Assembly: GCA_015234045.1 (NCBI GenBank)
Contig: JADFWU010000015.1
Location: 5,589 to 69,588, forward strand
Source: Magnetococcales bacterium
Lineage (GTDB): Bacteria > Pseudomonadota > Magnetococcia > Magnetococcales > JADFWU01
Length of the DNA: 64,000 bases
Direction of reading: 5' to 3'
The translations under genes and the position numbers were made by a program. Of this stretch, positions 29,493 to 46,511 are shown piece by piece; positions within the stretch are counted from its first letter, which is position 1; each line of letters starts with the position of its first letter. The notes under the pieces are model-generated. The model worked only from the letters and a program-made list of their open reading frames with translations, had not been told where the DNA came from and made no database searches.

Positions 29493-30638
29493 ATGAATGT
29501 TCTGTATCGAACAATAAAACGTTTTGTTTTCATGGTGCTGATTGTGTTTTTTGCATCAACTGTGACGGTGCATGCTCAAAGTGTGGTTGCTGTGGGCGAA
29601 GGTGCAACAAAACAGGCGGCCATCAATGATGCGATTCGTGCCGCCGTAGAAAAAGCGTTGGGTGCCTACGTTCAAGCAGACTCAAAAGTGAGTAACGGCA
29701 ATCTGGAATATGACCGCATTATCTCTTCAAGCAGTGGATACGTGCGCGATTATACCGTCCTCAAAGAGGGACATGATCCCATTGAGGAAGCCTACAAGGT
29801 TAAACTCCAAGCTGAAGTTGATGATGTTAAATTGAAAAGCGCTCTGGATGCGTTTCTCAACGATACGCGATTCCAAAAGACTTTCCAAAAGACCAGCTTT
29901 GATTCCCGCAAGGTGGTGGTTTTGTACAAGCGCCGCAGTACTGAAGATCTGGAGTATGACTCCAAGGGTGTTCAGACGGTTATGGATTTAATACAAGATA
30001 AATTGGTTGGTTACGGTTTCCGGGTGTTTCTTCAGGACCAGTTAAGCCGAATCAAGGATCTGGCTTCAGATGGAATGATCAATGAAAATGATGCGATACG
30101 GGTCGCGCAACAAGAAGATGGTGATGCTGTGGTTTTGGTCAGCATTGATGCCGGCAAACGCAGAACATCGGATGGTTATTATCTGATTCACTCTACATTG
30201 GGTATGAAGGCCTTTGATGTGACCACTGGTGAGTTGTTTGCCAATGTTCAGGATCGTGGCAAAACAGTCAGTCGTGGTGGTGAATACGGCATCTCTGATG
30301 GCGTGTCCCGTGTGGCGATTAAAATTGGTAGTGCTGCGGCTGAAAATCTGGTCAAAAAGATAGTTGAGCGTTTCTCGGGTGCCCGTTCGAAATTCATTAC
30401 GCTGATTGTCCGGGATGTTGCATTGGATGTGCAGGATCGAATTGAAGACTTGATTATGGATCTCGGTTGGGAATACCGCATTGGTCGGCAAGCTGGCAGC
30501 TATCTGGAGTTAGAGGTGTTCAGTGAGTCTGATCCAACATCCATCAGAAGTGAGTTTCGCCGTCAAGCGAGGCGGGCAGGGATAGCGCTTCAATCTGTTG
30601 GTATGAAGGGCAGTCGGATTATTTTCTCCAGTCCATAA
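29493..30638 (+). CDS. FlgT-like secreted protein (envelope cluster, paralogue A)
   Basis: A 381-residue exported protein. A signal peptide covers residues 1-28 (ending VHA). Residues about 30-115 match the FlgT N-terminal domain pattern: VAVGEGATKQAAINDAIRAA, then VEKALGAYVQADSKVSNG and YDRIISSSSGYVRDY. Residues about 135-290 look like the middle CsgG/TolB-N-type alpha/beta domain (RKVVVLYKRR, DAVVLVSIDA, ALGMKAFDVTTGE-like strand). A final small alpha/beta domain runs from about 300 to 381. FlgT in Vibrio forms the H-ring of the sheathed, Na+-driven flagellum. No other flagellar genes are here, so I infer only an outer-membrane-proximal periplasmic assembly role. ATG 29493 is chosen for the signal peptide. 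Confidence 0.72.
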   Translation: MNVLYRTIKRFVFMVLIVFFASTVTVHAQSVVAVGEGATKQAAINDAIRAAVEKALGAYVQADSKVSNGNLEYDRIISSSSGYVRDYTVLKEGHDPIEEAYKVKLQAEVDDVKLKSALDAFLNDTRFQKTFQKTSFDSRKVVVLYKRRSTEDLEYDSKGVQTVMDLIQDKLVGYGFRVFLQDQLSRIKDLASDGMINENDAIRVAQQEDGDAVVLVSIDAGKRRTSDGYYLIHSTLGMKAFDVTTGELFANVQDRGKTVSRGGEYGISDGVSRVAIKIGSAAAENLVKKIVERFSGARSKFITLIVRDVALDVQDRIEDLIMDLGWEYRIGRQAGSYLELEVFSESDPTSIRSEFRRQARRAGIALQSVGMKGSRIIFSSP

Positions 30639-30698
30639 ATTGGCTGTTTATTCTCAGCACGTGAATGTGGTATTGCACGGGTATCTAAGGGGTTTCGT

Positions 30699-31709
30699 AT
30701 GACCAGTTGGAAATGCATTGAGAAGAAATTGCGGACACCTGCACTGATTATTGCGGTTGGATTTTTGCTGTCTGCCTGTGCCACAGGTGGTTCAACAGTT
30801 GCTCCGAAAGGTGTGGCAGTAAAAGTGTTGCGGCCTGTCACCATGGTCCAGGGGAATACCTGCAATGCGGTGAATCTAATCTGGATTGATCAGGAACGGG
30901 TGATTTCATCAGAAGGAATCTTTCTGAGTGGGGTTGAACGGTCTCAACTGGCTGAGAAAGCGCGTTCTGTTGTCAATGAGACTGGGTTCCTTCAATCCAC
31001 CAGCCTGCCACCAGAGTCGGATTCTGTGCGTTACCACACCATGCTGATCAAACTGATCAATATGGATATTGATCAAGCTCAAACCGCTGCACATGCCACA
31101 AAGACCGGGCGCATTGAATTATCCATCGCCCTGAAGGAAGGGGGCGAGTTGTCTGGCTTTACCGAATGCTATTCAACCGATTTCTCCAAAGAAATCGTTC
31201 GGCGTGTACCAAAATACAAACACAGTCAGTTGCCCAGTGACTTCGATATGAAAAAAATGCTCATCGCTCGAGCTATTCGAAGTGTGTTACGCAAGTTTAC
31301 ACCTGCGCGGGTATCTACTTTTCGCCCTGTCTATGGTGGTCTTGGAGAGGCTGCCAAGGTTTCTGATTTATTGAATGGTGGAAATTGTAAACTTGCTTTT
31401 AAGGTTGCGCTTACTGCTTTGAAGGACAATGAAACAGATCAATCCATGCTCTTCAACGCCGGGGTGGCGGCTGAATGTTTGGCGGGAAAGAGTAGAAAAC
31501 AACTCGAAAAAATTAAAGCGCTAAAGAAATCACTGGAATTTTACGAAAAGGTCTTGATGGCTTCTCCATCCGATAAAGAGGCAAATCGAGCAGCGAAAGA
31601 GGTGGCGCAGACTCTGGAATTGTATGGTGATGCCGCAAGTAATCAGAGTGACTCTCGTATTAAACTTCAAAAACTGGAGCAGGAGTACTCAACACCATCT
31701 GGTTTCTGA
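30699..31709 (+). CDS. Lipoprotein with C-terminal helical repeat region (envelope cluster)
   Basis: A 336-residue lipoprotein. A lipobox LLSAC places the lipidated residue at Cys27, and Ala at +2 predicts outer-membrane sorting. The middle (about 60-200) is an alpha/beta region I do not recognise (VKVLRPVTMVQGNTCNAVNL, then DSVRYHTMLIKLINMDIDQA), and residues about 225-330 look like TPR-type helices (CKLAFKVALTALKDNETDQS, AECLAGKSRK, SLEFYEKVLMASPSDKEA). It follows paralogue A after 60 bases with an AAGGGG ribosome-binding site. A family 2 repeat with a 14-bp hairpin follows the stop. Confidence 0.7.
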   Translation: MTSWKCIEKKLRTPALIIAVGFLLSACATGGSTVAPKGVAVKVLRPVTMVQGNTCNAVNLIWIDQERVISSEGIFLSGVERSQLAEKARSVVNETGFLQSTSLPPESDSVRYHTMLIKLINMDIDQAQTAAHATKTGRIELSIALKEGGELSGFTECYSTDFSKEIVRRVPKYKHSQLPSDFDMKKMLIARAIRSVLRKFTPARVSTFRPVYGGLGEAAKVSDLLNGGNCKLAFKVALTALKDNETDQSMLFNAGVAAECLAGKSRKQLEKIKALKKSLEFYEKVLMASPSDKEANRAAKEVAQTLELYGDAASNQSDSRIKLQKLEQEYSTPSGF

Positions 31710-31717
31710 TATCTTAG

Positions 31718-31816
31718 GCGTTACGCAATTGCCGGTTGAAACAGACAGTAAAGTGTCTACCCATCATTCCCGCTTCCTCGGGAATGATGGGTGCAAAATG
31801 CATTCAACTGCGTAAC
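31718..31816. repeat. Inverted-repeat element family 2, copy 2
   Basis: About 99 bp with ends GCGTTACGCAATTG (left) and CAACTGCGTAAC (right) and a perfect 14-bp internal stem at 31759-31792 (ACCCATCATTCCCG with CGGGAATGATGGGT). It is homologous, in opposite orientation, to 33311-33373 on the other side of the next gene. The hairpin may also end transcription from the upstream genes. Confidence 0.7.
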
Positions 31817-31914
31817 TTTCATATCTATCGAAAATGAGTAATAAACGCGGCATGCCGACACATTTTACAGGTGCCGCTTTGTTTGAAAAATATTTTGTTT
31901 AGGAGATCAGTATA

Positions 31915-33291
31915 GTGAAAAAAATCAAATATTTAGCAATGGCTGGTGCCTGTGCTTTGATATTGAGTGGTTGTGGTGGTGCTGCGATGCAGATGGCTGG
32001 TGGTCTGGCCAGTGGCATGATGGGTGGTGGCGCACAGAGCAACTCTCTCAAAGGTGTGGAGATGGATTTCACCTTTGTGGATCAGGTAACCTCCATGCTA
32101 AGGGTCAACGAATTAATGTTGACTCGAATGGAAATATCCAGTGATGCCGAGTGGCCACTGGCGGTGATGCGTCCAGAGGGAGAGGGCGCTGATATCGCAG
32201 CATATGATAGTTGGTTGGAACAGAAGCTGAAAGAAGATTTCAGCTACTTTGAATATTACGGTGAGCTTTCAGGTATGGAGATGCTTGGGGCCATTGGTTC
32301 TATGGGACAGATGTTTAATACCGCTAAAGATCGAATTCTGACTGAAGCGATTAAATCTGTCGGTATGGATCTTGAGCATCAACGTCAGGTGTTGGACTAT
32401 CGTCCTGATGGCTGTGTCAGCCCAGCTTATGGTGGTGCTCAGAGTGCGAGTGAATCTGTCTGTGCTGCGGTGGAAAAAGAGAATAACCGGACAAAACTGT
32501 GTGGTTTTTTCAACGCGCCTTTGGAAGATCAGCTATTTGAATTTTTGTCCGGTGATCATTCAGCGGCAGACTGGTTGGATACACCGGTGGATGATCTCTG
32601 TTTGAGGCCGGTTACCGCATTGTCTGGTTCAATTCATAAGAATGTTAATGCCGCCTTTATCAGTCTGCTTCCTGAGCATCTCTCAGAGGAGATTCAAGCT
32701 GTTGAGTCCAATATCACTGAGATGACTGAACAGAAATCAGATTTGGAAGCGCAGATCAAACAGGCAGAAGCCAGCGAAGAGAATAGCATCAGTGCAGATG
32801 AAATTACCGCTCTGAAACAACAGGTCACAGATCTGGAAGAGCAAATTAAAGCAGGACAAGCCACCTATGCCAAGCTGTTTGAAGAGGCTATGGGTGCTGT
32901 TGAAGGAACGGACGCTAATGTCGTTTTGGCCCGTCAGGTCCGTCGGGTGATTGGTGCGGTTGATGGCAACCTGTCAATTGCTTCTACGGGTGCTGTCGCA
33001 GTAATGGCCAAAATGGTCATTGATATGAAGGATCTTGCTAGAGCAGGTCTCGATCCCTTGGGTACGGCGGCTGTTATGGCAGGTGAAGCGGCCGGTAAGA
33101 ATGAAGCGCTTACTGCTGAGGAATTACAACAGAAAATGCAGGAGCGTGTTGAACGTTTGATCAAACGTTCAATCTCCTTCTTGCCCAATGCGTTGGGTAT
33201 TCTGAATAGGATTATGGTGCAACGGGATCTTGTTTCAAGTAAAGTGGAATACCTTGATAAGTTGATCAAGATTGGCGAAAAGCAGGGATAA
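31915..33291 (+). CDS. Coiled-coil lipoprotein of unknown family (envelope cluster)
   Basis: A 458-residue lipoprotein starting at GTG 31915 with AGGAGA 8 bases upstream. Lipobox LSGC gives Cys20. A Gly/Met-rich linker follows (MQMAGGLASGMMGGG). The N-terminal half contains several Cys (YRPDGCVSP, SVCAAVEK, TKLCGFF, DDLCLRP) that could form disulfides. Residues about 260-320 form a coiled coil (QAVESNITEMTEQKSDLEAQ, ALKQQVTDLEEQIK). The C-terminal helical region is Ala-rich. No known family was recognised. It is flanked on both sides by inverted copies of the family 2 repeat, so it could be a separate insertion unit within the cluster. Confidence 0.7.
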   Translation: MKKIKYLAMAGACALILSGCGGAAMQMAGGLASGMMGGGAQSNSLKGVEMDFTFVDQVTSMLRVNELMLTRMEISSDAEWPLAVMRPEGEGADIAAYDSWLEQKLKEDFSYFEYYGELSGMEMLGAIGSMGQMFNTAKDRILTEAIKSVGMDLEHQRQVLDYRPDGCVSPAYGGAQSASESVCAAVEKENNRTKLCGFFNAPLEDQLFEFLSGDHSAADWLDTPVDDLCLRPVTALSGSIHKNVNAAFISLLPEHLSEEIQAVESNITEMTEQKSDLEAQIKQAEASEENSISADEITALKQQVTDLEEQIKAGQATYAKLFEEAMGAVEGTDANVVLARQVRRVIGAVDGNLSIASTGAVAVMAKMVIDMKDLARAGLDPLGTAAVMAGEAAGKNEALTAEELQQKMQERVERLIKRSISFLPNALGILNRIMVQRDLVSSKVEYLDKLIKIGEKQG

Positions 33292-33310
33292 TAGCTTCGG
33301 CTTGATGTAG

Positions 33311-33373
33311 GCATTACGCAGTTGAATGACGGGTACACGCTTTGATATCTGTTTCAAACGGCAATTGCGTAAC
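33311..33373. repeat. Inverted-repeat element family 2, copy 3 (short form)
   Basis: About 63 bp with ends GCATTACGCAGTTGAATG (left) and GGCAATTGCGTAAC (right). Read as reverse complement it matches copy 2 along GGGT..ACAC.CTTT..CTGTTTCAA, but it lacks the arm that forms the copy 2 hairpin. It lies between two lipoprotein genes. Confidence 0.68.
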
Positions 33374-33401
33374 TCCTATGATGATTGATATCGGAGAGTG
33401 A

Positions 33402-34637
33402 ATGATGGATAGACGGTTTAAGTCTGCAAAAACCTGGTTAAGCAGTATAACAGCCGTGCTGGTCATGGGGTTGTTTCTGAGTGGCTGTCAAGAGAAGCCT
33501 AAAGCAGCTGTTTCCGAAATGGATAATCCCTGGCATCACTATGCTCAGGGTATGGAAGCACTGGATGAAGGCCGTGTGGATCGCGCCTCTGCCAAGTTCA
33601 GTCGAGCCATAGCACTTTCCGAGGATTTTTCACCAGCCCTGGCTGGCCAAAGTCTGATCATGGCCCTTAAGGCCGCTGATCAGGAAGATGCTGGTCACCG
33701 CCGTGTTGATTGGGAAAAAGCGGAAGATCTGCTTGATGCGGCCAGAAGTGCAGCGGATACCGATGCCGATACTTTTATCTACCAAACCACTGCAATTCGT
33801 GTTCTGACGGCAGCCCAACCTGATCGTTGGATTGACAAAGCCCGTATTCACCATGTCAGTGCGCTGGAAGTGGATGATCTAAAAGATACTGATTTGCCTT
33901 ACTATCAGTACAAAGCCGCTGCCGATTACTTCATGGCCGAGGCGTGGTTTAAAGCGGACTTCCGTAAAGCACCTCAGTTGTTGACCAAAGTACTGGGAGC
34001 GCGCGGAGATGGTAAATGGCAAGGGCCAGCCGACAAATTGTATCAACGGGTTCAGAAAATCATCCGGGCTTCTGCTGGCCATATGGTGAGCGGTAAAGCG
34101 TTGCAGATTGCCATCAAAGATTCAGTCACACGTGGGGATGCGGCTGCTCTGTTGGTTGATGAGTTGAAACTCGATAAACTTCTGGCCGGTCGGATTCGGG
34201 TTGCTTCAGTTGAGGCTAATCGTAAAGCTGAATACACACCGGCTGATGTGTTGAATCATCCGTTCCGTGATGAAATCAGCACCATGATGAAGTGGCGTGT
34301 TCGTGGACTTGAGCCTAACTATGATGAGTCCACACGTGCTTGGCTGTTTAAACCACAGGACTCCGTTCCTCGGAAAGATCTGGCTTTGGCCTTAGAGGAT
34401 GTGCTGATTGGTCTAACAAAGGATCAGGGCATTGCAACAGCTCATATCGGAGCAGAACGTTCGCCCTATCCTGATGTTTCTCCTAATCTGCCTTGGTTTA
34501 ATGCGTGTATGACCTCGGTCACACGGGGATTGATGCAGTTGGGATTGTCCGGTGAGTTTCGTCCTGATGAGCCGGTCAGTGGTGCTGATCTTCTATTGGC
34601 TGTTTTTAAACTGCGCAGCGTAATGAACATTCACTGA
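33402..34637 (+). CDS. Lipoprotein with TPR-like and SLH-like motifs (envelope cluster)
   Basis: A 411-residue lipoprotein. Lipobox FLSGC gives Cys29, with Gln at +2 (outer membrane). Residues about 42-200 contain TPR-like helices (YAQGMEALDEGRVDRASAKF, FSRAIALSEDFSPALAG, YKAAADYFMAEAWFKAD). Near the C-terminus two S-layer-homology-type motifs are visible: one from HPFRDEISTMMKWRVRGLEP to SVPRKDLALALEDVL, and another from SPYPDVSPNLPWFNACMTSV to FRPDEPVSGADLLLAVF. SLH motifs bind cell-wall or surface polymers, and their combination with an outer-membrane lipoprotein in a Gram-negative is uncommon. ATG 33405 is an equally possible start. Confidence 0.68.
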   Translation: MMDRRFKSAKTWLSSITAVLVMGLFLSGCQEKPKAAVSEMDNPWHHYAQGMEALDEGRVDRASAKFSRAIALSEDFSPALAGQSLIMALKAADQEDAGHRRVDWEKAEDLLDAARSAADTDADTFIYQTTAIRVLTAAQPDRWIDKARIHHVSALEVDDLKDTDLPYYQYKAAADYFMAEAWFKADFRKAPQLLTKVLGARGDGKWQGPADKLYQRVQKIIRASAGHMVSGKALQIAIKDSVTRGDAAALLVDELKLDKLLAGRIRVASVEANRKAEYTPADVLNHPFRDEISTMMKWRVRGLEPNYDESTRAWLFKPQDSVPRKDLALALEDVLIGLTKDQGIATAHIGAERSPYPDVSPNLPWFNACMTSVTRGLMQLGLSGEFRPDEPVSGADLLLAVFKLRSVMNIH

Positions 34638-34737
34638 GATTGGGGCTGAGTGATGCATCGGTTTTGTATCTATTGATGGCGTGCTCAAAGATAGATGGAT
34701 TGCAAGCATACTTTGAAAAAATGGAACTGAGGGGGAT

Positions 34738-36741
34738 ATGGTGAAGCCAGACCAAATGAATCATAAAAAAGGCATGTGGTTGAGTGGATTGCTCATGCTG
34801 ATGGCCTTGGTGTTTGCTGCCTGTGCGCCTGTGGAAGAGTTTGCCAAACGTGCGGATCAGATGGAAGCGCGTGGCCAATATTCATCAGCAGTCCGGGAGT
34901 TGCAAAAAGGGTTGAAAGAAGCGCCTGGCAATCCGCTACTCACCAAGTCCATGCAGCGTATTAAAACCAACTGGGCTAATCACACATTGGGTGAAGCGCG
35001 TTCTGCTTCCCGAGATATGGACCAATCCCTTGCTCGGCGTCTTAAAGCAGGTCTGACACTCGCCAAACAGGCAAAAAATATTGCTGATACAGCGGCAATC
35101 TCCTCTTTCATCACCAAGATGGAAGCGGAGCTAAAATCAATCAGCGATCGACAGAGAAAGTGTATTGAAGCGGGCAATGAAGCGCTGAAAAATGAGAGCG
35201 TCATTGATGCCGCACGTACTACGTTGCGCCGCTGTATTGAGGAGGATCCAGACAATAGTGAGGTGCAGGACCTTTCTGCAAAGGTTAACCGCCGTTGGGG
35301 TGACAAGGTCTATATGGAGGCCGATGAAGCCCTGAAAAAAGGTCAGGAAGAGCTGGCTTTGATGCTGATTGATCGTCTATTGAAAGTGGATGCCAAATAT
35401 CCTGGTGCTGTTTTGCTCCGCAAACAGGCAGATGGTGCCGCAACTGCCCGGCGTCGCCTTGTTAAGGTGCGTTCTTTCATGGAAGAAGGGGCTTCACTGC
35501 GTGCTCTGGAGGCCTATCGTAGCATTGATCCCAACAATGTCCGGGTCAATGAAAGTTTGGCGGTGGAGATGGATAGCATCGTTGAACAGTTGGGTAATAC
35601 GCTTCTGCGTCAAGCACGTGATTTGATGGCGACGCGCCGTTTGGGTAAAGCCATGTTGCGTTTAGAAGGAGCTGTGGATGTTTTGCCCAGTGTGCGGTTT
35701 ACACCAGAGGCTGAGTCAATCATTCGGAAACTGGAAAATCGTGCATTGTCGTTTCAAGATGAAGGGCTACTGGGTAATGCCTATTATGCTTTTCTGAAGT
35801 TGAAAAAAATTGCTCAGTGGGGTGGACGCAATCGGGATGTGATGGATGAACTTCATCATCAACTGCGTGAACGCAACATCGTGACTATCAGTTTGGTTGA
35901 TTTCGGTACGCCATCCAATGAACCAGATGCAGGCACCTATTTCACTTCTCAGCTGACCAATATGCTTTTTGAGCGTCGTGAATCTGATCTGAAAATCGTT
36001 GAACGTGAGCGGATCAAGGATGTCATCAAGGAACTTCAGCTGGACACCAGTGGTATGACCAGTATGGAGAGTGCCAAGAAGATTGGTCATATCCAAGGTA
36101 TTGACTACTTCATCTTTGGCAATGTGGTGGAGTATCAGGTAGAAACCGTTGATCAACCAACACAGCGAACCGTAAAAGTGGAAGTGGGACGCAGAAAAAT
36201 TCCCAACCCTGCATTCCAGACCTTTATTCTGATGAATCCCAATACCTGGCAGGAGATGATGCGTCAGGGTGTGGCACCTCAAAAGACCATTGAAGAGGCG
36301 CAGCATCAGCTCATTCAGTTCCAGGAGGGCACGATTGCCAAGCGTACTACCGGCAATCTCTATATGCGTATCATTGAGGTCGAACGGGGTGATATTTTTA
36401 CCACTCGTGCGTTTAAGAAAAAGCACGAAGAGTCGGACCACTATTCCGATGGGGTTGGATTGGCGAATATCCAGGCTGATCCCAAGGAAATTGCCAGTGA
36501 TAAAGCGATGCTGGGTAAAATTTCCAAAGAGATTCTGGATGAAGCATCCTCCTTTGTGCTCGACCTGTTTGCCGACCGCGAAACGTCCAAATCAACCACA
36601 GCGGCTAATCTGGTAAAGCAGGGTGATATGCTTTCTGCGGTTGAGAAGTGGGTGGATGCATGGATGATTGCTGAAACAAAGAAAAAAGAGGTTAAACCAT
36701 TTGTTCAGGGTGCAACTGACGCAGTCCTGGAAGCGTGGTAG
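34738..36741 (+). CDS. TPR-CsgG-like lipoprotein (envelope cluster)
   Basis: A 667-residue lipoprotein. Lipobox VFAAC gives Cys29 with Ala at +2. Residues about 35-370 are tandem helical repeats (AEARGQYSSAVRELQKGL-like units), each carrying a LARRLKAGLTLA or DAARTTLRRCIEED type helix. Residues about 380-610 resemble a CsgG-family domain: TISLVDFGTPSN, YFTSQLTNMLFERRESDLKI, VERERIKDVIKELQLDTSGM, IGHIQGIDYFIFGNVVEYQV. A last helical repeat follows (LVKQGDMLSAVEKWVDAW). CsgG forms an outer-membrane secretion pore in curli systems; related domains occur in envelope assembly lipoproteins. The long helical N-terminus is atypical for a pore, so a scaffold role is equally likely. The next gene starts 4 bases after its stop. 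Confidence 0.74.
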   Translation: MVKPDQMNHKKGMWLSGLLMLMALVFAACAPVEEFAKRADQMEARGQYSSAVRELQKGLKEAPGNPLLTKSMQRIKTNWANHTLGEARSASRDMDQSLARRLKAGLTLAKQAKNIADTAAISSFITKMEAELKSISDRQRKCIEAGNEALKNESVIDAARTTLRRCIEEDPDNSEVQDLSAKVNRRWGDKVYMEADEALKKGQEELALMLIDRLLKVDAKYPGAVLLRKQADGAATARRRLVKVRSFMEEGASLRALEAYRSIDPNNVRVNESLAVEMDSIVEQLGNTLLRQARDLMATRRLGKAMLRLEGAVDVLPSVRFTPEAESIIRKLENRALSFQDEGLLGNAYYAFLKLKKIAQWGGRNRDVMDELHHQLRERNIVTISLVDFGTPSNEPDAGTYFTSQLTNMLFERRESDLKIVERERIKDVIKELQLDTSGMTSMESAKKIGHIQGIDYFIFGNVVEYQVETVDQPTQRTVKVEVGRRKIPNPAFQTFILMNPNTWQEMMRQGVAPQKTIEEAQHQLIQFQEGTIAKRTTGNLYMRIIEVERGDIFTTRAFKKKHEESDHYSDGVGLANIQADPKEIASDKAMLGKISKEILDEASSFVLDLFADRETSKSTTAANLVKQGDMLSAVEKWVDAWMIAETKKKEVKPFVQGATDAVLEAW

Positions 36742-36745
36742 CGTT

Positions 36746-37870
36746 ATGCGACAACTTATTGCTCTGTTTTTCTGTTTGTCGCTGATAGGTATCGTGGCAC
36801 CTGACACTGGAATGGCTCAGGAGCTTGTTGTCACTGGTATGGCTGATCTTGAAGAGTTTCGGGATCGTGGTCGTGCGCGGGATGAAGCGCTGAAGGATGC
36901 ATTGGTCAAAGCAGTTGAACAGGGACTTGGGGTTCAGATTCAGGCCGAATCCCAGGTTTCAAATGGTATGCTTGGTCGGGATGATGTGTTGTCTCGCACT
37001 GGTGGTTTTGTCAAATCACATCAAATCATTCGGGAGTGGGTTGATTCAGATCTGTTTTATGTCAAAGTTAAGGTTCTCTTACAAAAAGGGAGTGTTGCTG
37101 ACGACAAACAGGGAAAAGGGATGGTTAAACAGTGCCAGCACCGTCCACGGATGGTATTGATAGTTGACGGGGCGGAGCGTGCTCAGACGCGAGAGATGGA
37201 AGGTGTGTTTTTTCGCGCTTTGAAGAAACAGGGCTTTCCGAGTGTCGATCCGGAAGTTGTGCGCTCATCTCTGGCCCGTCAAGCTGCTGCGATGGATGTG
37301 GCAGGTTATGAAAAAGCAGGGCGTTCAGTGGCGCTTCAGTATGGTGGTGAAGTATTGGTGAAGGTTGCTGTTGAAAGTCAACAGCAGGGTGGTGGAAGCT
37401 ACGGTGATATGAAACTGCCGGGCACTGTACGTTCAATCATTACTGCTCGTGCCGTTCGTGTTGATTCTGGTGAAGTGATCGCCAGTGCGGATGATGCCAT
37501 CTCAGGTGGCGCGCGGCGTATGAGTAGCTCAGCACGACGTATGGCAAATAAGATTGCCCAGAAGTTGGGCAATTCCATCTGGAAAAGTTGGCAGTCTCAG
37601 TGTTATGACAAAGATGTCCTGACCTTGATATTGACTGGCAAAGATGTGTGTGCCAAATCTCTACAGTTTGGTCAGTATATCAAAGATAAGATGCGCGGCG
37701 TAAAAGCCATGCATATCAGAGCTTGTTTAGGCGCAAGTGCCACGGTCGAATTAGAGTATCAAGGCAAGCCGCAGGCATTTATAACAAAGCTGAAATCCAT
37801 GCGCGGTTTACCGAATCGTTATTCTCTGGTCGGCTTTACTGCCAATCAGGTATCATTGGAATTGAAGTAA
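36746..37870 (+). CDS. FlgT-like secreted protein (envelope cluster, paralogue B)
   Basis: A 374-residue exported protein with a signal peptide (residues 1-24, ending GMA). It is a relative of the protein at 29493: a FlgT-N-like domain at about 26-115 (GRARDEALKDALVKAVEQGL, then GVQIQAESQVSNGML and RTGGFVKSHQII), a middle alpha/beta domain (about 130-285, RMVLIVDGAERAQTREMEG), and a C-terminal small domain starting DVLTLILTGKDVC that parallels the end of paralogue A. ATG 36746 is chosen because it starts directly at a signal peptide, 4 bases after the previous stop. It is probably translated with the CsgG-like lipoprotein and likely acts with it in the periplasm. Confidence 0.72.
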   Translation: MRQLIALFFCLSLIGIVAPDTGMAQELVVTGMADLEEFRDRGRARDEALKDALVKAVEQGLGVQIQAESQVSNGMLGRDDVLSRTGGFVKSHQIIREWVDSDLFYVKVKVLLQKGSVADDKQGKGMVKQCQHRPRMVLIVDGAERAQTREMEGVFFRALKKQGFPSVDPEVVRSSLARQAAAMDVAGYEKAGRSVALQYGGEVLVKVAVESQQQGGGSYGDMKLPGTVRSIITARAVRVDSGEVIASADDAISGGARRMSSSARRMANKIAQKLGNSIWKSWQSQCYDKDVLTLILTGKDVCAKSLQFGQYIKDKMRGVKAMHIRACLGASATVELEYQGKPQAFITKLKSMRGLPNRYSLVGFTANQVSLELK

Positions 37871-37925
37871 GGCGAATTCGGGATTTATAAATAACCGCCA
37901 AGTGACACAAACAAAGGGTGGATTG

Positions 37926-38801: not shown

Positions 38802-38831
38802 TTGACCTGAGTTACGTGCAATAAGCACGTG

Positions 38832-38900: not shown

Positions 38901-38930
38901 GAAAAGGCGCTCTATTATGGTGGATCTGTA

Positions 38931-40706
38931 ATGATCAGAAGGCAGTCAAATATAGGGATACCCGGCTATTGTCCGGGTATCCTTTTTTGGCATTGTGTCA
39001 CTGTTTATCGGTGTACAGCCTTAATTTTTTTTATTTCTGCATTTATTGCTGCATCACTGCTTGCTCCATCACTGGCTCAGGCGGACTCTGATGTAACTGA
39101 CTCTTATGCGTTCCAATCCCTTGAAAGACCAGTAAGTGCTTTACGGCGGCGTGAACCGCTTATTTCTCAGTTTATCAATATCAAGAGTGAAAAGTTATTG
39201 ATGCGTGGCAAAGTGGTTATCCGCTCGCTGCGTCCTTTGTATGTTGAAGTGGTACTGAGTCAAACAAGTGGTCAACCCTGGGATATTTTGCAAAAAATAT
39301 CGTCTTGGGTAACTTTGCCTACCAAGGACTTATTGTGGCTTCAATCAATTCCTGAAATTACAGCGCGAAATGTTCATCTGGTGTTTTCCAATGTACATGG
39401 GCGTTTTTATATGGAGTGGCTCTCTGCGCAGCGGATTGATATATCTCAAGGGTGGTTGGATCAGGTCCGTGCCAGGGTTTTGGATGGATTGGGGCGCTGG
39501 AGTCTTCAGTGGCAGAAAGGTTGGTTGTCGTCTCTACCAGTGGGTGAAGGATTCTGGAAAGGGGTGCGTGATCTCTCCAGTGAGTGGGTTACACTTTCGG
39601 GTGAGGGGGGTGATCAACTTCAGATTCAAGCGCAAAAATTGGATATGGCCGGCATGACAGTGAATGGACTGATGGGACGGCTTCAGCGATTGGACCATAT
39701 TAACCGTCAGCGGCATTGGCAACTCTATTCCAGCACTGTTGATTTTATTCTGGATAAGTTGCATTCCCATTTGAGAAGTACGCCTGCAATTTGGCAGTAT
39801 ATGCAAGTTCATTTGGCTCAACAGGGTGTTGATGATCAGATGATTTTTTCAGGTCAGGCCAGGGTGGATAAAGTGCGCCTCTCCTGTCAGATGTCCGACC
39901 AGGATCAACCGTTGTGGTCTACGCTTTCCTTGAATGGTCATGCGGCGTTGACGCATGTGAACCTGAAGTCAACGCCGGATGGTGTGCGATTACTTGAAAT
40001 ACCGGCTCTGACCTTTGATCTTACTCGGCAACAGGATGGACAGTGGCAGCTTGCTAATTCTCAAGGCGTTTTTGAGCATCAGGGTGGTCGTTTAAAGGTC
40101 AAGTCCTTGGATCTTACATGGCCGAAGATCTCCTCGGTAAGTCGCGGACAAGTTGAAGCGGTAGCTTGGCCTGTTGGTCAATGGCGGCTAAATGGCAGTT
40201 TGGGGGGAGATCGTGCCAGCGGAATTGATTTTGAAGGTCGATTCACTCTTAATAGTCTGCCCGGTCAACTCAGATTAACCGGTCGGGTAACGGCGCAGGA
40301 GGGTATCGCGGAAGATGCTGCTCTGGTGCGGCTCTATCAATTGGACTTGCCACTCTGGAGTGTGCAGCAGCAAAATGTTCATACCATGCTGCATCTATCC
40401 AGAGATATCAATACGCCGGTACAAATGGAGATTGATCAGCTTCAGGTAGAAGGTCAAACCGTATTGAACCAAATCCTAATGCGTGTAATCAACAAGGATA
40501 CTTCTTCTCTGCCTGAGAGCAGTCTCATTGCCTTTTGGCAGGGGGGGGATAAGTGCGGTCAAGCTTGGCAAGGTGGCGCACGTTTTTCGTCGGATATGGC
40601 ATCCTGGTGGATGATTGATGATAAGGATGAGGGTATGCACAACGGATTGTCACAGTTGGTGTCTGGTTGTTCACAACAGGTCATACTGGGAGAGTCTATC
40701 CAGTGA
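38931..40706 (+). CDS. Beta-rich exported protein of unknown family (AsmA/DUF748-like flavour)
   Basis: A protein of up to 591 residues that I do not recognise with certainty. A signal-like segment (ALIFFISAFIAASLLAPSLA) ends near residue 50. The rest is a long series of alternating beta-strand patterns with repeated SLN/GRL-type edges (EEVVLSQTSGQP-like strand, LSLNGHAALTHVNLKST, LKVKSLDLTWP, LRLTGRVTAQEG, VQMEIDQLQVEGQTVL), reminiscent of AsmA/DUF748 envelope proteins. The start is uncertain. ATG 38931 is the only ATG/GTG/TTG start in frame before residue 90, yet a strong terminator lies over codons 9-20, so a non-standard start such as ATT near 39027 could be used. Its stop overlaps the SpoIID gene (GTGA). 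Confidence 0.6.
   Translation: MIRRQSNIGIPGYCPGILFWHCVTVYRCTALIFFISAFIAASLLAPSLAQADSDVTDSYAFQSLERPVSALRRREPLISQFINIKSEKLLMRGKVVIRSLRPLYVEVVLSQTSGQPWDILQKISSWVTLPTKDLLWLQSIPEITARNVHLVFSNVHGRFYMEWLSAQRIDISQGWLDQVRARVLDGLGRWSLQWQKGWLSSLPVGEGFWKGVRDLSSEWVTLSGEGGDQLQIQAQKLDMAGMTVNGLMGRLQRLDHINRQRHWQLYSSTVDFILDKLHSHLRSTPAIWQYMQVHLAQQGVDDQMIFSGQARVDKVRLSCQMSDQDQPLWSTLSLNGHAALTHVNLKSTPDGVRLLEIPALTFDLTRQQDGQWQLANSQGVFEHQGGRLKVKSLDLTWPKISSVSRGQVEAVAWPVGQWRLNGSLGGDRASGIDFEGRFTLNSLPGQLRLTGRVTAQEGIAEDAALVRLYQLDLPLWSVQQQNVHTMLHLSRDINTPVQMEIDQLQVEGQTVLNQILMRVINKDTSSLPESSLIAFWQGGDKCGQAWQGGARFSSDMASWWMIDDKDEGMHNGLSQLVSGCSQQVILGESIQ
38956..38988 (+). terminator. Textbook rho-independent terminator overlapping the next reading frame
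   Basis: GGATACCCGG (38956-38965), a 7-base loop, CCGGGTATCC (38973-38982), then six T (38983-38988). It should terminate transcription coming from the genes that end at 38801. It also spans codons 9-20 of the following reading frame, which raises doubt about that gene's start or suggests attenuation. Confidence 0.88.
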
Positions 40707-42724
40707 GAGTCAGAAGGAGTAGGCCGCTTTATTCTCTCTCTGTTGTGATCTCTATGCTGATGATCATGGTGACCCCGCTTGCTTCGTTTGGTCAGACAGT
40801 ATCACTGGTCAAGCATAATCTTAAGAGTGATGCTGTTTATTTTGAGGATGTCGGACAGTATCTCGAAGCGCTTGTCGCTTATGATCATATGTACCGATTC
40901 AATGAAGTGCCTGAAAAAAAAGTCCGAGCGTTGATGGAACGTGCCCGAATATTGGCTGTTTATCTGGATGCTCCTGAGGCCTCGCGCAAGGTGTATCAGA
41001 AGATTCGCCGGGAATTTCCTTCTCGCGCTGGTCAAGCTTGGTACGCTGAAGGACGGTTATTGGTCGAAATGGAGCGCTGGAATGACGCGCAGACACTGTT
41101 GAGTGAATATCGCAAGCAGTTGCCAAATGATCTCTATGCGTTTCATGCTCAATATTTAATGACTGTTGCTGAACAACGGCGAAGCAAAGCCAATAATACA
41201 CCGGTAACTGGCGTTGTATCGAACAACGCACCATCCTCAGAACAGAAGCCGGAAAAACAGTCTGTAGATGCATCTAAAAAAAAGACCACTGACGAACCGA
41301 TTTCTCAACAAACCAAGACCCCGATAGAAAACAGCAAAGAGGCAGTCAAACAGCAAGAGACCATTACGGAAAAAGCTGTAATTATCCCACCGGATATCGA
41401 TTCGGTGTCGGACGGTGATGCTCTTGTAGAAAGCGGTTTACCGGATATTGATTCAGTACCGGATGATGTGCCATTACCCATTCCGTTGCCCAAAAGGCGT
41501 TTACCACATGTTCAGCCAAACAGTGATGTGATTGTTCCATCCGTTCCTACGGATGCAGCCGCCAAAGAAGGTGCTGGTGGTCCAGCAGTGAAGGACCAGA
41601 AAGCTTTTTACTATCAAATGTCCGAGGTTGAAGAGCCTACTGTACGCATACTCCTGCTTCGAAAATCACCACTGCTTCAGTTAGTAGCAAAAGGGCTGCA
41701 ATTTTATCAAAATGGTGAATTAGTTTGGCAAGGCACCCAGGCGGTTGTCAAAGTCATTCATGGTCGGCTGGTTTTGACTGGAGGTTGGCAGTATCCCAAT
41801 GAACCAGCGCCAGCTTGGGCAGGCCCTATTCAGGTAAAAGCTGAGGAACCGATCCGTGTGGTCAGTGGTTCCGGTAATAGAAAAAGTGTGCGTGGTACAG
41901 TGTGGTTGGCGGTCCGTGATGAGCGGATACGAGTGATCAATCATGTGGGTATCGAATCCTATCTACGCGGTGTCATGCCGGTATCCTCTCAAGGCAGCTG
42001 GCCTGCTGAGGCATTGAAAGCACAAGCCATAGCGGCTCGGACATTTGCTTACTTTCAAATTCGTCACCGTATCCACCTGGAATATGATATGGTGGATCAG
42101 CATGGAGAACAGGGATATGGCGGTGTCGGACGTGAAGTTGCGCCCGCTGATGCGGCTGTAGCGGAAACACGCGGGCGTATTCTTGTGTTGACTCAAGGTG
42201 TGGGTGCTGGCATGCCCATCTACGCGAAATCGACCACCAATAATGGTGGTCGCAGTGCAGACTCTGGTGACCTATTCACCTTTTCGTTGCCCTATCTGGT
42301 TTTTCAGAACGATCCCTGGAGCGAAAAAGGTAAAATGGTTTCATGGCAACGCAGATATGCCCTGGCGGATGTCGGACAATATCTGGTCAATAGAGGTGTT
42401 GTCGGAGCTGAAGAATTGGTTGGATTCAGAAGTGATCGTGTCAGCCGTTCAGGGAGAATGTTGACTGCCACTGCCGTGATGAAAGGTAGAAAAACAACCG
42501 TGCCGACTCAGTTTTTCCTGATGGGAGATTTGAAATTACCCAGCATGTTGACCACTGTGCAAGATAAGGGTGAATATGTTGTGTTCCAAGGTTATGGTTT
42601 TGGTCATGGGCTTGGTTACTCGAAGTGGGGCGGTGTTGTGATGGCCAAGGTACTTAAAAGCGTTTTTGGTCGTATCCTGGCATTTTATTATCCTGGCACA
42701 TCGTTGGCTCAAGCATGGCACTAG
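40703..42724 (+). CDS. SpoIID/LytB-domain peptidoglycan-modifying protein with TPR-like N-terminus
   Basis: A 673-residue exported protein starting at GTG 40703, overlapping the previous stop. A signal peptide ends near SFG. Residues about 30-150 are TPR-like helices (YLEALVAYDHMYRFNEVPEK, ARILAVYLDAPEASRKVYQK). Residues about 155-300 are a low-complexity Pro/Lys/Ser linker with a repeated PDIDSV motif. The C-terminal SpoIID domain (about 390-665) has VGIESYLRGVMPVSSQGSWP, EALKAQAIAARTFAYFQIRH, STTNNGGRSADSGD and GYGFGHGLGYSKWGGVVMAK. SpoIID cleaves peptidoglycan as a lytic transglycosylase acting on denuded glycans in sporulators. In this Gram-negative setting it may open the cell wall for the neighbouring envelope proteins. 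Confidence 0.85.
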   Translation: MRVRRSRPLYSLSVVISMLMIMVTPLASFGQTVSLVKHNLKSDAVYFEDVGQYLEALVAYDHMYRFNEVPEKKVRALMERARILAVYLDAPEASRKVYQKIRREFPSRAGQAWYAEGRLLVEMERWNDAQTLLSEYRKQLPNDLYAFHAQYLMTVAEQRRSKANNTPVTGVVSNNAPSSEQKPEKQSVDASKKKTTDEPISQQTKTPIENSKEAVKQQETITEKAVIIPPDIDSVSDGDALVESGLPDIDSVPDDVPLPIPLPKRRLPHVQPNSDVIVPSVPTDAAAKEGAGGPAVKDQKAFYYQMSEVEEPTVRILLLRKSPLLQLVAKGLQFYQNGELVWQGTQAVVKVIHGRLVLTGGWQYPNEPAPAWAGPIQVKAEEPIRVVSGSGNRKSVRGTVWLAVRDERIRVINHVGIESYLRGVMPVSSQGSWPAEALKAQAIAARTFAYFQIRHRIHLEYDMVDQHGEQGYGGVGREVAPADAAVAETRGRILVLTQGVGAGMPIYAKSTTNNGGRSADSGDLFTFSLPYLVFQNDPWSEKGKMVSWQRRYALADVGQYLVNRGVVGAEELVGFRSDRVSRSGRMLTATAVMKGRKTTVPTQFFLMGDLKLPSMLTTVQDKGEYVVFQGYGFGHGLGYSKWGGVVMAKVLKSVFGRILAFYYPGTSLAQAWH

Positions 42725-42809
42725 CCGTGAGTTACTGATTGATTTTGTTTTATATGTTTACTCGACCGTTTCCACAGGGGAGCAGACGGTTATTAGGGAG
42801 GAATTGCCC

Positions 42810-44711
42810 ATGAAGAAGTCTATTTTTTTTAGAAAGCCACAGATTTGGCTATTGGGTGGTCTGGTTGTGACAGCCCTTTTAACCGGCTGTGTTGCAGCGA
42901 CCAAGACCGCCGTCGTCGGTGGTCCGGCTTTTACCACCAATATTGGTGAGACCGAATCGTCTGTAGATCGGGCGGGTCTACCCGCAACAGTAGCCTTTCT
43001 GCCCTTTGTCAATGGTACCGATGCTGATCGGGCTTTTGAGATTGTACGTCGTACGATGTCCAGTCATTTTTCAGGCAAGAACTATCGGATGATGCATATT
43101 CGGGAAGTGGATCGCCGTCTGAGAGCTGCCAAGTTGACAGATCCTGCTGAAATTGCCAAGAGACCAGCACATGAAATTGCCGGTATTCTGGGTGTCGATG
43201 GTTTGATGTATGGCACAATCACCCATTATGACAAGCTGTTTTTGCTCACCTATGCACAAGTGGCTGTGGGTGTGGAAATGCGTTTGGTAAATCTGAAAGG
43301 TAAAGAAATCTGGAATGGCAATCAGGTAAGCCGGAAGCATGAGGGCGGTGTGGCTACCACACCGGTGGGCTTGATTCTCAATGCTGCTTTTGCGGCTTGG
43401 CACATCAAGGATGATGCCAATCTGTTCCGTGCGGCTGATGAGTTGGGCCGTGAACTGATGGGTACTATTCCAGAACCAAAAGCGATTGCCGGTGCTAAGC
43501 GTCCGCGTATCATGCAGGTTGTTCATGATGGAATGGGCAAAATCCTCAAGTTTGGTGATTCTCTTTCTATAGCAGTTGAGGCTGAGCCGGGTCTTAAAGC
43601 TGCTTATGCTCGTGTGGATGGTCTGGGTTTGGTTGATCTGGTAGAAACGGAAAAGGGCTTCTACACAGCTAAAGTAGATATCAAGCCCAAGGATAATGTA
43701 AAGGCAGCCGCTGTTGTGGCTGTGGTTGAAAATGAAGAAGGCACTATGGTTGAACGTGTTTCACCGCTTGGCGTGGTGAATGTAGACAATATTCCACCAG
43801 AGCCAGTGACCGAGTTGAAAGTAGAAGGTAGAGATGATGGCTTGGTAGTCAGCTGGACATCGTCAAAATCGGAAGATCTCAAAGAGTATAAGATCGGTAT
43901 CTCCGATGTGCCTCAAGGACCATTTGCTGAGTTGGCTAAAATCGGTGAAAGTCGCTATACCCATAAATCACCCAATTTCAAAGTTGTTCATGTTGAAGTG
44001 ATTCCCGTAGATCAGGCAGGTAATGTGGGACAAGCGGTTACTGTCGCTGGTCGTGCTGTACCTGATCCACGATTTGATACGGCTGCGTTGTTGCCGCGTA
44101 TCGTGCCTGCTCGTATTACCGCTACTTCAGTTATGACTCGGGAAAACAGTCCCTATACCATCAATGCGCCTGTTGAATTGGCCAATACTGGTGTATTGCT
44201 GATCGAGCCAGGTGTTGCCATCCATTTGGAGCGTAAAACCGGTATCACAGTGCAAGGTGAGTTGCAGATATTTGGTACGCAGACCACACCGGTTACTGTG
44301 GCTGGTGTGAATAACGGCTCATATACCACCTTTTTGCGTCTGGACAGTACATTGCCGGTATCTATTCGTGGTTTGAGAAGTTCCGGTGGTGATCTGCCTA
44401 TTGTCATTACCGCTGGTGCGCCGATGATTCTGGACAGTCAGCTACTCAACAACACATACAGTGCGTTGGAAATCGGTGGCAGTAGTCGTCCGGTGATCCG
44501 TGGTTGCGAGATTCGTGGTAGCAACGCGGCTGGTGTAGTTGTGAAAGAGCAGGCTCAGCCGCAGTTTACCGGTAATAACTTTGCTGAAAATAGCCCGTTT
44601 CATATCCAAAGCAGTTCACCCTATAAGCTGAATGCCCGTGACAACAGTTGGACACCAAAAGCAACCAACATCACTGTGCTTGGCAATGTGGACTTCAAAC
44701 AATCCAAGTAA
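42810..44711 (+). CDS. Lipoprotein fusing a GNA1162-like domain, FN3 and a beta-helix (envelope cluster)
   Basis: A 633-residue lipoprotein. ATG 42810 follows AGGGAGG, and the upstream extension to 42666 lies in the previous gene. Lipobox LLTGC gives Cys27. Residues about 45-220 resemble GNA1162/DUF799 lipoproteins (TVAFLPFVNGTDADRAFEIV, HEIAGILGVDGLMYGTITHY, GKEIWNGNQVSRKHEGG). An FN3-like domain (about 325-415) has PPEPVTELKVEG and DGLVVSWTSSKSEDLKEYKI. Residues about 440-630 look like a right-handed beta-helix (GVLLIEPGVAIHLERKTGIT, QLLNNTYSALEIGGSSRPVI, RGCEIRGSNAAGVVV). GNA1162 commonly occurs with CsgG-like partners, and here one lies 6 kb upstream. The fusion with a beta-helix is unusual and may bind glycan at the surface. 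Confidence 0.78.
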   Translation: MKKSIFFRKPQIWLLGGLVVTALLTGCVAATKTAVVGGPAFTTNIGETESSVDRAGLPATVAFLPFVNGTDADRAFEIVRRTMSSHFSGKNYRMMHIREVDRRLRAAKLTDPAEIAKRPAHEIAGILGVDGLMYGTITHYDKLFLLTYAQVAVGVEMRLVNLKGKEIWNGNQVSRKHEGGVATTPVGLILNAAFAAWHIKDDANLFRAADELGRELMGTIPEPKAIAGAKRPRIMQVVHDGMGKILKFGDSLSIAVEAEPGLKAAYARVDGLGLVDLVETEKGFYTAKVDIKPKDNVKAAAVVAVVENEEGTMVERVSPLGVVNVDNIPPEPVTELKVEGRDDGLVVSWTSSKSEDLKEYKIGISDVPQGPFAELAKIGESRYTHKSPNFKVVHVEVIPVDQAGNVGQAVTVAGRAVPDPRFDTAALLPRIVPARITATSVMTRENSPYTINAPVELANTGVLLIEPGVAIHLERKTGITVQGELQIFGTQTTPVTVAGVNNGSYTTFLRLDSTLPVSIRGLRSSGGDLPIVITAGAPMILDSQLLNNTYSALEIGGSSRPVIRGCEIRGSNAAGVVVKEQAQPQFTGNNFAENSPFHIQSSSPYKLNARDNSWTPKATNITVLGNVDFKQSK

Positions 44712-44752
44712 ACAGGCGTGCTTTTCACGGTTAAGTTTAGAGGGAGACGGTC

Positions 44753-45772
44753 ATGAGTGACCATACGGGATTAATAAAGAAAATTCTATCTGTCAGCACT
44801 CTGGTACTGATGACGGCTCTGCCGGTAACCGGTTGGAGTCAGGGACCGGGCGAAGTGGTGGAGTGGAGTGGTTCAGCGGGTGCAGTAAACTGGACACGTG
44901 GCCGTGTGATGGCTGAAGGTAACGGCATGGGCAAGCGCAAAGGCCCGTCTCGGCTTGTGGCTGCTCAGGCGTGTCGTGCTGCGGTTGTGGATGCACAGCG
45001 TAATTTGTTGGAGACGGTCAAAGGTGTTCGTGTCGAGGGTGAAACTGTTGTCGAAAATATGATGCTCACCAGCGATGTGATTAAGTCATCAGTCAGCGGT
45101 GTGGTGCGTGGTGCGGTGGTTAAAAATCGGGAAGTGTTCCCTGATGAAGGGGCCTGTACCGTGACCATGGAAATGCCGATGGAAGGCTCTTTTGCTTCTG
45201 GAATTTTTCAGAACATGCCCGATTCGCCTCAAGCCAATATGCGACCTGGAATATCGGACTGGAAACAGTGGGTAAGCTATGGACTGGATTGGTTGATTCG
45301 CCCAGCCCATGCCGCATCATCGGTTGGTGCGCCGTGGCAGAGCCAGATGAATCAGCTTATGGAGCGCTTGGAACGGTTGGAAAAAGTTGTACAAGCCCAG
45401 GCAGCAGGTAATCAGTCCAAACAGAAACGCAGTGGCAGTCCTACCGGATTGGTGATTGATGCACGTGGGACAAACTTTATTCCCAGCTTGTCGCCTAAAG
45501 TCCGCCAATTACGTGCTGGTATTCTCTACCCGACCCCAAGAAAACGCGAACAACAGCGTCAGGGTGAACTGGTTTCTCTGTTTATGAAAGACTTGGTTCT
45601 AGCACAGAATCATCCACGAGTTGGTGATCGGCCTTTGGTACTCAAAGGACTCAAGACTTGGGGCAAGTATCGCACTGAAATTGTCTTGGGAACTGACTCC
45701 TCAAAAGAGTTGACTGCACTGATTCAAAAAAATTTCCTTGCTGAAGCCGGTGTGATTATCGTTCTGGATTGA
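44753..45772 (+). CDS. LPP20/FlgT-N-like secreted protein (envelope cluster, paralogue D)
   Basis: A 339-residue exported protein. A signal peptide ends near WSQG. The shared domain (about 60-150) has ACRAAVVDAQRNLLETVKGV, RVEGETVVENMMLTSDVIKS and VSGVVRGAVVKNREV. A linker with Pro/Trp and a short coiled coil follows (MNQLMERLERLEKVVQAQAA). The C-terminal half (TGLVIDARGTNFIPSLSPKV onward, ending EAGVIIVLD) aligns with that of paralogue C at 37926. It is the last + strand gene of the cluster and its 3' end overlaps the convergent next gene by 17 bases. Confidence 0.7.
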   Translation: MSDHTGLIKKILSVSTLVLMTALPVTGWSQGPGEVVEWSGSAGAVNWTRGRVMAEGNGMGKRKGPSRLVAAQACRAAVVDAQRNLLETVKGVRVEGETVVENMMLTSDVIKSSVSGVVRGAVVKNREVFPDEGACTVTMEMPMEGSFASGIFQNMPDSPQANMRPGISDWKQWVSYGLDWLIRPAHAASSVGAPWQSQMNQLMERLERLEKVVQAQAAGNQSKQKRSGSPTGLVIDARGTNFIPSLSPKVRQLRAGILYPTPRKREQQRQGELVSLFMKDLVLAQNHPRVGDRPLVLKGLKTWGKYRTEIVLGTDSSKELTALIQKNFLAEAGVIIVLD

Positions 45773-46511
45773 CTCTGTTCTGTTGCGCTTTGAAGTGTAA
45801 TGGTGTTGTTAAATTATAACGATCGGCCAGTTTGATTGCCCGCCTGGAATAGGTACGGGCTGTATCAGACTGGCCTTTTTTTTTGGCTTCTTTGGAGAGT
45901 GTAATATAGCGATCAACAGTGTGTTCCAGTATCTGTTTAATCCGAGTCCGTAGTTGTGGATGATCGGGTGCATAGTTGCGGACTTGTTTAAGGTAATAGA
46001 GCACATTATGTTGGCTAGGGCGGGAAAGCCGATCATTGGCCAGGGCATCTTCCGCTTTGGCGAGAAGCGTATTGACTATCGTTATCACATCCTGAGATTT
46101 GTCAATCAGTTCTCCACGCGCTTTATGTTCTGGTTCCCCTTTTTCCTGATGGCTCTGACCCGAGTAATTGGCCTGTTGATGTTCTGCTTCAATCACAGAG
46201 CGCTGAGCTTTTTTGACTTGGTTTCGGGCGTATTCAAAAACCTTTCTGGCACGGGCATAGTTGGCTTGTTCCTGATCAATGGGAACCGAAGGATCAAGTA
46301 GTGTCAGGGATTGTTTTTGTTTCAGTAACGCTGTGGCTTCGTTGAGAGTCTGTTTATGGATGGCAAGTTCTTTTTCTGCGGCGGCAAGTGCATTACGAGC
46401 CAGTTGCATGGTGAGTTGAGCGTTATCCGATGCTATGGTGACTGTTGGGATCAATAAAAGAAATCCATGAAGAAGTGCCAGCAGCATCAAGGATGGTGTG
46501 ATCAGTCTCAT
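45756..46511 (-). CDS. Helical periplasmic protein (end of envelope cluster)
   Basis: A 251-residue exported protein. ATG 46511 is used because AAGGAG precedes it and a signal peptide follows (about residues 1-28, ending IAS). The mature part is nearly all helical with heptad-like patterns (AQLTMQLARNALAAAEKELA, ARKVFEYARNQVKKAQRSVI), resembling DUF4398-type envelope proteins, then a second helical domain (PSQHNVLYYLKQVRNYAPDH, EHTVDRYITLSKEAKKKG). No catalytic motif is visible. It is convergent with paralogue D and shares its last 17 bases with it. It could be the coiled-coil partner of the cluster. Confidence 0.65.
   Translation of the reverse strand: MRLITPSLMLLALLHGFLLLIPTVTIASDNAQLTMQLARNALAAAEKELAIHKQTLNEATALLKQKQSLTLLDPSVPIDQEQANYARARKVFEYARNQVKKAQRSVIEAEHQQANYSGQSHQEKGEPEHKARGELIDKSQDVITIVNTLLAKAEDALANDRLSRPSQHNVLYYLKQVRNYAPDHPQLRTRIKQILEHTVDRYITLSKEAKKKGQSDTARTYSRRAIKLADRYNLTTPLHFKAQQNRVNPER

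What the first reader, a model, noticed from the sequence alone, without database searches (positions are those of the whole stretch)
29493..46511. Large envelope gene cluster with four FlgT-N/LPP20-like paralogues, CsgG-like and GNA1162-like lipoproteins, SLH motifs and a SpoIID enzyme
Twelve consecutive genes, eleven of them on +, all encode exported proteins: five outer-membrane-type lipoproteins (C27, C20, C29, C29, C27), four secreted proteins sharing one domain, a beta-rich protein, a SpoIID/LytB peptidoglycan enzyme, and a convergent helical protein. CsgG, GNA1162, FlgT-M and TolB-N folds are related and often work together in outer-membrane assemblies. I do not know this combination as a described system. 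I infer a multi-protein complex anchoring something at the surface (flagellum base, S-layer or polymer) across the peptidoglycan.
Basis: partly seen in the sequence, partly recalled or inferred. Interest (0 to 1): 0.85.

Follow-up and report, generated by a model that had tools for sequence, protein, structure and literature searches.

The report
Flagellum-independent FlgP-like envelope gene cluster
A block of eleven genes for exported proteins combines relatives of the protein that builds disk-shaped rings around some flagella with wall-binding and outer-membrane-anchored proteins; its core is kept together in several distant bacterial lineages, one of them without flagella, so it probably builds an undescribed scaffold between outer membrane and cell wall.

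Summary
In detail: eleven co-directional genes (29493-45772) encode exported proteins, five with lipoboxes, plus a convergent one. The four 'FlgT/LPP20' proteins are one domain family. A profile of g7/g11 relatives hits FlgP, the flagellar basal-disk ring protein, by sequence (1.3e-16), across the beta-hairpin insert tied in the literature to ring formation; their second domain is D2 of Treponema Tp0624 (4.4e-10). A core is conserved and physically linked: g4 (TPR+SLH, SLH in 10/10 homologues), g7, g10 (GNA1162+FN3+beta-helix), g11, usually with a peptidoglycan lytic protein (SpoIID, or a MltC-like enzyme), and in relatives FecR and CHASE2-cyclase genes. Core genes occur in 13 of 398 Pseudomonadota genomes, six families, patchily. 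Flagella are not required: one 98%-complete carrier lacks FlgI and FlhA, and most Magnetococcia lack g4. g1, g2, g3, g5, g8 and g12 are outside the conserved core. The window's SpoIID protein has serine for the catalytic glutamate. Best reading: a wall-anchored FlgP-type ring or disk under the outer membrane, not a curli pore; assembly is inferred, not shown. New variant of a known kind.

The parts
29493..30638 (+). g1: secreted protein with FlgP/FlgT-type SHS2 domain; one clear orthologue elsewhere (G018), unlinked; not in the conserved core
30699..31709 (+). g2: lipoprotein (C27), no family, no relative found
31915..33291 (+). g3: lipoprotein (C20) with coiled-coil-like stretch, no relative found
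33402..34637 (+). g4: lipoprotein (C29), TPR-like N-terminal half and SLH region; core gene
34738..36741 (+). g5: lipoprotein (C29), TPR plus partial CsgG domain; unlinked partial relative in G018
36746..37870 (+). g6: secreted FlgT_N/LipL46-like protein, FlgP-type SHS2 domain; relatives in G048, G152 loci
37926..38801 (+). g7: secreted, FlgP-type SHS2 domain + Tp0624-D2-like domain; core gene
38931..40706 (+). g8: exported beta-rich protein, no family; weak relative beside a g10-type gene in G002
40703..42724 (+). g9: exported TPR + SpoIID protein; catalytic Glu replaced by Ser428
42810..44711 (+). g10: lipoprotein (C27), GNA1162-like + FN3 + right-handed beta-helix; core gene
44753..45772 (+). 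g11: secreted paralogue of g7 (FlgP-type SHS2 + Tp0624-D2-like); core gene, always next to g10
45756..46511 (-). g12: convergent exported helical protein; no syntenic relative, probably not part of the system

Best explanation
The core (g4, g7, g10, g11, with g9 or another peptidoglycan lytic protein) encodes an envelope scaffold that works like the FlgP basal disk but is not part of the flagellum. g7 and g11 (and more distantly g1 and g6) are secreted proteins whose N-terminal SHS2 domain with beta-hairpin insert polymerises into rings or disks on the periplasmic side of the outer membrane; their Tp0624-D2-like domain projects from the ring to bind partners. g10, encoded next to g11 in every locus, is the outer-membrane lipoprotein partner that anchors the ring through its GNA1162-like domain, with FN3 and beta-helix domains as spacer or polymer-binding face. 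g4 is a lipoprotein whose TPR part binds the scaffold and whose SLH region grips the wall. The SpoIID or MltC-like protein opens or recognises peptidoglycan; in the window lineage the SpoIID copy has probably become a binding module. In other carriers, FecR and CHASE2-cyclase genes suggest a link to cyclic-nucleotide signalling. Shown: domain homologies, export signals, linkage, co-occurrence, absence of flagellar genes in one carrier, loss of the Glu. Inferred: ring assembly, anchoring, interactions, regulation.
For: A profile of 23 g7/g11 homologues hits FlgP (C. jejuni 1.3e-16; others 1.3e-11 to 1.1e-8) and Tp0624 D2 (4.4e-10). AlphaFold model of g11: strand-helix-hairpin-strand-strand; best Foldseek hit is the C. 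jejuni motor scaffold chain 9hmf_A, 1.5e-7, 29% identity over 104 columns. The insert correlates with ring formation in this family (PMC12222027). The g6/g1 profile also hits FlgP, 9.3e-10. Full-length g10 and g4: 10 and 11 of 398 genomes, 8 shared, P 5e-13 ignoring relatedness; 4 shared of 5 families each. Both lie on one contig within about 6 kb in 7 of 8; in the eighth (G027) both lie at contig ends. g10-g11 are adjacent in all eleven loci read. SLH in 10/10 g4 homologues. Full TPR-SpoIID proteins were found only in seven carrier genomes of 200 searched; a MltC-like SLT lies next to g4 in G083, G134, G217. G048, 98% complete, has g4-g7-g6-FecR-CHASE2 cyclase-SpoIID but no FlgI or FlhA.
Against: No experiment shows rings. 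g7 and g11 are larger than FlgP, lack a lipobox and carry an extra domain. The hairpin of the g11 model has low confidence (pLDDT below 50 around 97-118). Most carriers do have FlgI, so a flagellar link in some lineages is not excluded. g10 is absent from the G048 locus, and g4 from the G005 contigs (fragmented assembly). CHAT, caspase and FecR genes near the core in relatives point to a wider envelope-signalling setting that a pure scaffold does not need.
Confidence: 0.5

Rival explanations
1. A flagellar accessory: the proteins form a basal-disk or H/T-ring-like collar around the flagella, as FlgP, FlgT and FapH do, adapted in some Magnetococcia.
For: FlgP homology; the window genome has FlgI and FlhA; its flgF-flgJ locus holds no separate FlgP-like gene and no other strong FlgP-like hit was found in the genome.
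Against: G048 has core genes but neither FlgI nor FlhA; only 6 of 48 genomes of the class have g4; no flagellar gene was seen beside any copy.
Confidence: 0.2
2. A wall-remodelling or envelope-homeostasis module without rings: lipoproteins with LpoB/GNA1162-type domains steer peptidoglycan enzymes (SpoIID, MltC-like) under control of FecR and CHASE2-cyclase sensors, and the SHS2 proteins are small adaptors.
For: A lytic transglycosylase of one of two unrelated families recurs in the neighbourhood; FecR genes recur; a CHASE2-FecR operon with a peptidoglycan-binding protein controls biofilm in Burkholderia (PMC5192318).
Against: The enzyme of the window copy lacks the catalytic Glu; no lytic enzyme was seen in the L026 cluster or on the short G152 contig; it does not explain several conserved ring-type paralogues.
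Confidence: 0.2
3. A curli-like secretion apparatus with a CsgG-type pore that exports a surface polymer.
For: CsgG domain in g5 and CsgG/GNA1162-type folds.
Against: g5 covers only part of the CsgG domain and is not in the conserved core; no curlin-like substrate or CsgE/F-like partner was recognised among the annotated genes.
Confidence: 0.07

Closest known systems
FlgP basal disk of the flagellar motor (Campylobacter jejuni, Vibrio)
   Same: SHS2 domain with the ring-associated hairpin insert; significant sequence similarity (1.3e-16)
   Different: two-domain proteins without lipobox, several paralogues, outside flagellar loci, present in a genome without FlgI/FlhA
FlgT (Vibrio H ring)
   Same: SHS2-type N-terminal domain and similar length for g1/g6; structural match of g11 N-terminus (Z 6.0)
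   Different: FlgT_N below the Pfam cut-off; sequence profile reaches Vibrio FlgT only at E 0.3, over the N-terminus
Treponema pallidum Tp0624
   Same: D2 domain of g7/g11 (4.4e-10) behind an SHS2-like N-terminal domain
   Different: no C-terminal OmpA-like D3; wall contact here may be made by a separate SLH lipoprotein
GNA1162 (Neisseria) lipoproteins
   Same: lipoprotein with GNA1162-like domain (4HRV 2.4e-9)
   Different: fused to FN3 and beta-helix domains; no full CsgG gene in the conserved core
SpoIID lytic transglycosylase
   Same: SpoIID domain, TIGR02669 1e-39
   Different: catalytic Glu replaced by Ser; TPR region in front; not a sporulation context

Membership tests
FlgP basal-disk protein | SHS2 domain related in sequence to FlgP | tested here: met
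FlgP basal-disk protein | beta-hairpin insert between SHS2 helix and second strand | tested here: met
   alignment spans the insert; hairpin strands 96-101 and 104-110 in the model, at low confidence
FlgP basal-disk protein | small single-domain lipoprotein | tested here: not met
   g7 291 aa, g11 339 aa, extra domain, no lipobox
FlgP basal-disk protein | flagellar genomic context or dependence | tested here: not met
   no flagellar neighbours seen; G048 lacks FlgI and FlhA
FlgP basal-disk protein | ring formation | not testable with these tools
   needs electron microscopy
FlgT | FlgT_N domain over curated cut-off | tested here: not met
   g6 27.1 bits, g1 18.9 bits against 28.8
CsgG | complete CsgG domain including the barrel-forming part | tested here: not met
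   g5 covers profile 33-105 of 210
GNA1162-like | domain over curated cut-off | tested here: met
   45.9 bits against 25.9; 4HRV 2.4e-9 with the profile
SLH proteins | SLH domain over curated cut-off | tested here: met
   26.3 bits against 20.8; SLH matched in 10/10 homologues
SLH proteins | binding to the wall or its polymers | not testable with these tools
   needs a binding assay
SpoIID lytic transglycosylase | SpoIID domain | tested here: met
   TIGR02669 137 bits against 83.3
SpoIID lytic transglycosylase | catalytic glutamate (E101 of C. difficile) | tested here: not met
   S428 in g9, Q in L025; Glu kept in L027, L029, L089 and in the window genome's second copy
Tp0624 | D2 domain | tested here: met
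   4.4e-10 over residues 131-261
Tp0624 | C-terminal OmpA-like D3 | tested here: not met
   g7/g11 end after D2; no OmpA match

The most novel reading that the evidence does not exclude
FlgP-type ring proteins form a stand-alone, SLH-anchored outer-membrane-to-wall assembly that exists without flagella, from which, or alongside which, the flagellar basal disk arose.
Probability: 0.35. Interest if true: 0.8.

Novelty: new variant of a known kind. Interest (0 to 1): 0.6.

Why it matters
Disks and rings built by FlgP and FlgT are described as flagellar adaptations. A conserved gene block with FlgP-type domains, present in a genome without FlgI and FlhA, makes a flagellum-independent use of these ring domains, and the origin of the flagellar disk, directly testable. 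It also links the orphan D2 domain of Treponema Tp0624 to this family and gives it a gene neighbourhood.

Tried and rejected
Whole 12-gene order as one conserved unit: rejected, only a core is syntenic. g8 as a homologue of the large AsmA-looking proteins near the core in G083, G110 and G134: profile comparison gave no support, and Pfam finds no AsmA domain in those proteins. g4 structure: low confidence (mean pLDDT 52), and Foldseek gave only weak, TPR-type matches, none at E 0.001, so the SLH fold is not confirmed structurally. Horizontal transfer: the g10 tree leaves the deep branches unresolved, and the g10/g11 identity correlation (r 0.97) is confounded by relatedness. NCBIfam matches to TraC and LipL46 lie far below their cut-offs. 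PHROGs gave nothing useful. Promoter-like sites are no more frequent than in shuffles. Literature searches found no description of this combination in the open-access library. The f15, f18 and f42 genomes could not be named with the tools.

Full report
Observation. The window lies in a 3.65-Mb, 93%-complete genome (G000:C24:5589-69588). Eleven + strand genes, 29493-45772, all carry export signals; lipobox cysteines are at C27 (g2), C20 (g3), C29 (g4, g5) and C27 (g10). The twelfth gene is convergent.

The four paralogues. Iterated profile searches unite g1, g6, g7 and g11 and many relatives. With 23 g7/g11 homologues (A10) a profile search of all PDB sequences returns FlgP proteins first (9hmf_C 1.3e-16; others 1.3e-11 to 1.1e-8) and Tp0624 (5jir) at 4.4e-10. 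The alignment to C. jejuni FlgP runs through the beta-hairpin insert that PMC12222027 correlates with ring formation. The AlphaFold model of g11 (mean pLDDT 57) shows strand, helix, hairpin, two strands; its only Foldseek hit below 0.001 is 9hmf_A (1.5e-7). VIA-align lists Tp0624 (Z 7.8) and FlgT (Z 6.0), moderate values. The second domain of g7/g11 corresponds to Tp0624 D2; Tp0624 follows it with an OmpA-like domain (PMC5104382) that g7/g11 lack. The g6/g1 profile also reaches FlgP (9.3e-10).

Conservation. In Magnetococcales MAGs of family f8 the order is DUF4384 protein - g4 - g7 - g9 - g10 - g11 - FecR/TPR protein, with a CHASE2 cyclase upstream in L026; L026 lacks g9 at this place (names). 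G005 has two g9-g10-g11 stretches, one with g10 79% identical to the window's. G048 (f15) has g4 - g7 - g6 - FecR/TPR - CHASE2 cyclase - SpoIID. In f18 and f42 (G083, G152, G217, G110, G134) g10-g11 pairs and/or g4 with g7-like genes are present, FecR genes lie near them in G083, G110 and G134, and a MltC-like lytic transglycosylase lies next to g4 in G083, G134 and G217. Across 398 Pseudomonadota, full-length g10 is in 10 and g4 in 11 genomes, 8 in common; the union is 13 genomes in six families. In family f18 only 2 of 74 genomes have full-length g10. Full TPR-SpoIID proteins were found in seven of 200 genomes, all of them Magnetococcia or f15 carriers; other matches are weak and cover the TPR part only. 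g2 and g3 have no relative found; g5 and g1 have unlinked relatives in G018; g8 has a weak relative beside a g10-type gene in G002.

Flagellum link. FlgI is found in 13 of 16 genomes examined, not in G005 (71% complete), G030 (65%) or G048 (98%); FlhA is likewise not found in these three. So the core does not need a flagellum in G048. g4 is in 6 of 48 genomes of the class. The window genome's flgF-flgJ locus shows no FlgP-like gene.

SpoIID. The catalytic glutamate E101 of C. difficile SpoIID is required for activity (PMC6221140). It aligns with S428 of g9 and with Gln in L025, but Glu is kept in L027, L029 and L089 and in a second TPR-SpoIID gene of the window genome on contig C46. g9 is therefore probably inactive as a transglycosylase (inference from sequence).

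Mechanism. I put 0.5 on a flagellum-independent, peptidoglycan-anchored scaffold of FlgP-type rings below the outer membrane, with g10 as lipid anchor and g4 as wall grip. Assembly, partners and regulation are inference. A flagellar accessory (0.2) and a wall-remodelling module without rings (0.2) remain open; a curli-like pore (0.07) is unlikely.

Novelty. All domains are known. The combination, the two-domain FlgP/Tp0624-D2 proteins and the flagellum-independent conservation were not found described in the papers searched, a library that misses most subscription journals. I file it as a new variant of a known kind.

Noticed in passing
L039 (own genome contig C81): Slam-type outer-membrane protein next to a TPR gene with a weak TbpB-barrel match, two CsgG-domain proteins and a FlgT_N-like gene: a possible surface-lipoprotein cluster.
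   Followed up: partly
L109:308-2098 (own genome contig C46): Second TPR-SpoIID protein that keeps the catalytic Glu, near a two-partner secretion pair; f8 genomes also have a second TPR-SpoIID copy elsewhere.
   Followed up: partly
L110:7890-17999 (own genome contig C29) and L093 (G083): FecR/TPR protein, 1277-aa protein without Pfam family, DUF1318 lipoprotein and a PD40/TPR protein in a row; a similar-looking lipoprotein and large protein lie side by side in G083 contig C27.
   Followed up: partly
L103:3541-4032, L104:4686-5225: FlgP-like genes of 163-179 aa in f8 genomes, not near flagellar genes but before a conserved 167-aa protein and an exported protein of about 630 aa.
   Followed up: no
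L030, L031, L032, L036: GNA1162-type proteins like g10 in other Magnetococcia, three of them directly beside FHA-domain proteins: another use of this architecture.
   Followed up: partly
L083:8355-18000, L084:7601-9874: WD40-caspase, OmpA-WD40-caspase and TPR-CHAT proteins inside the G083 cluster.
   Followed up: no
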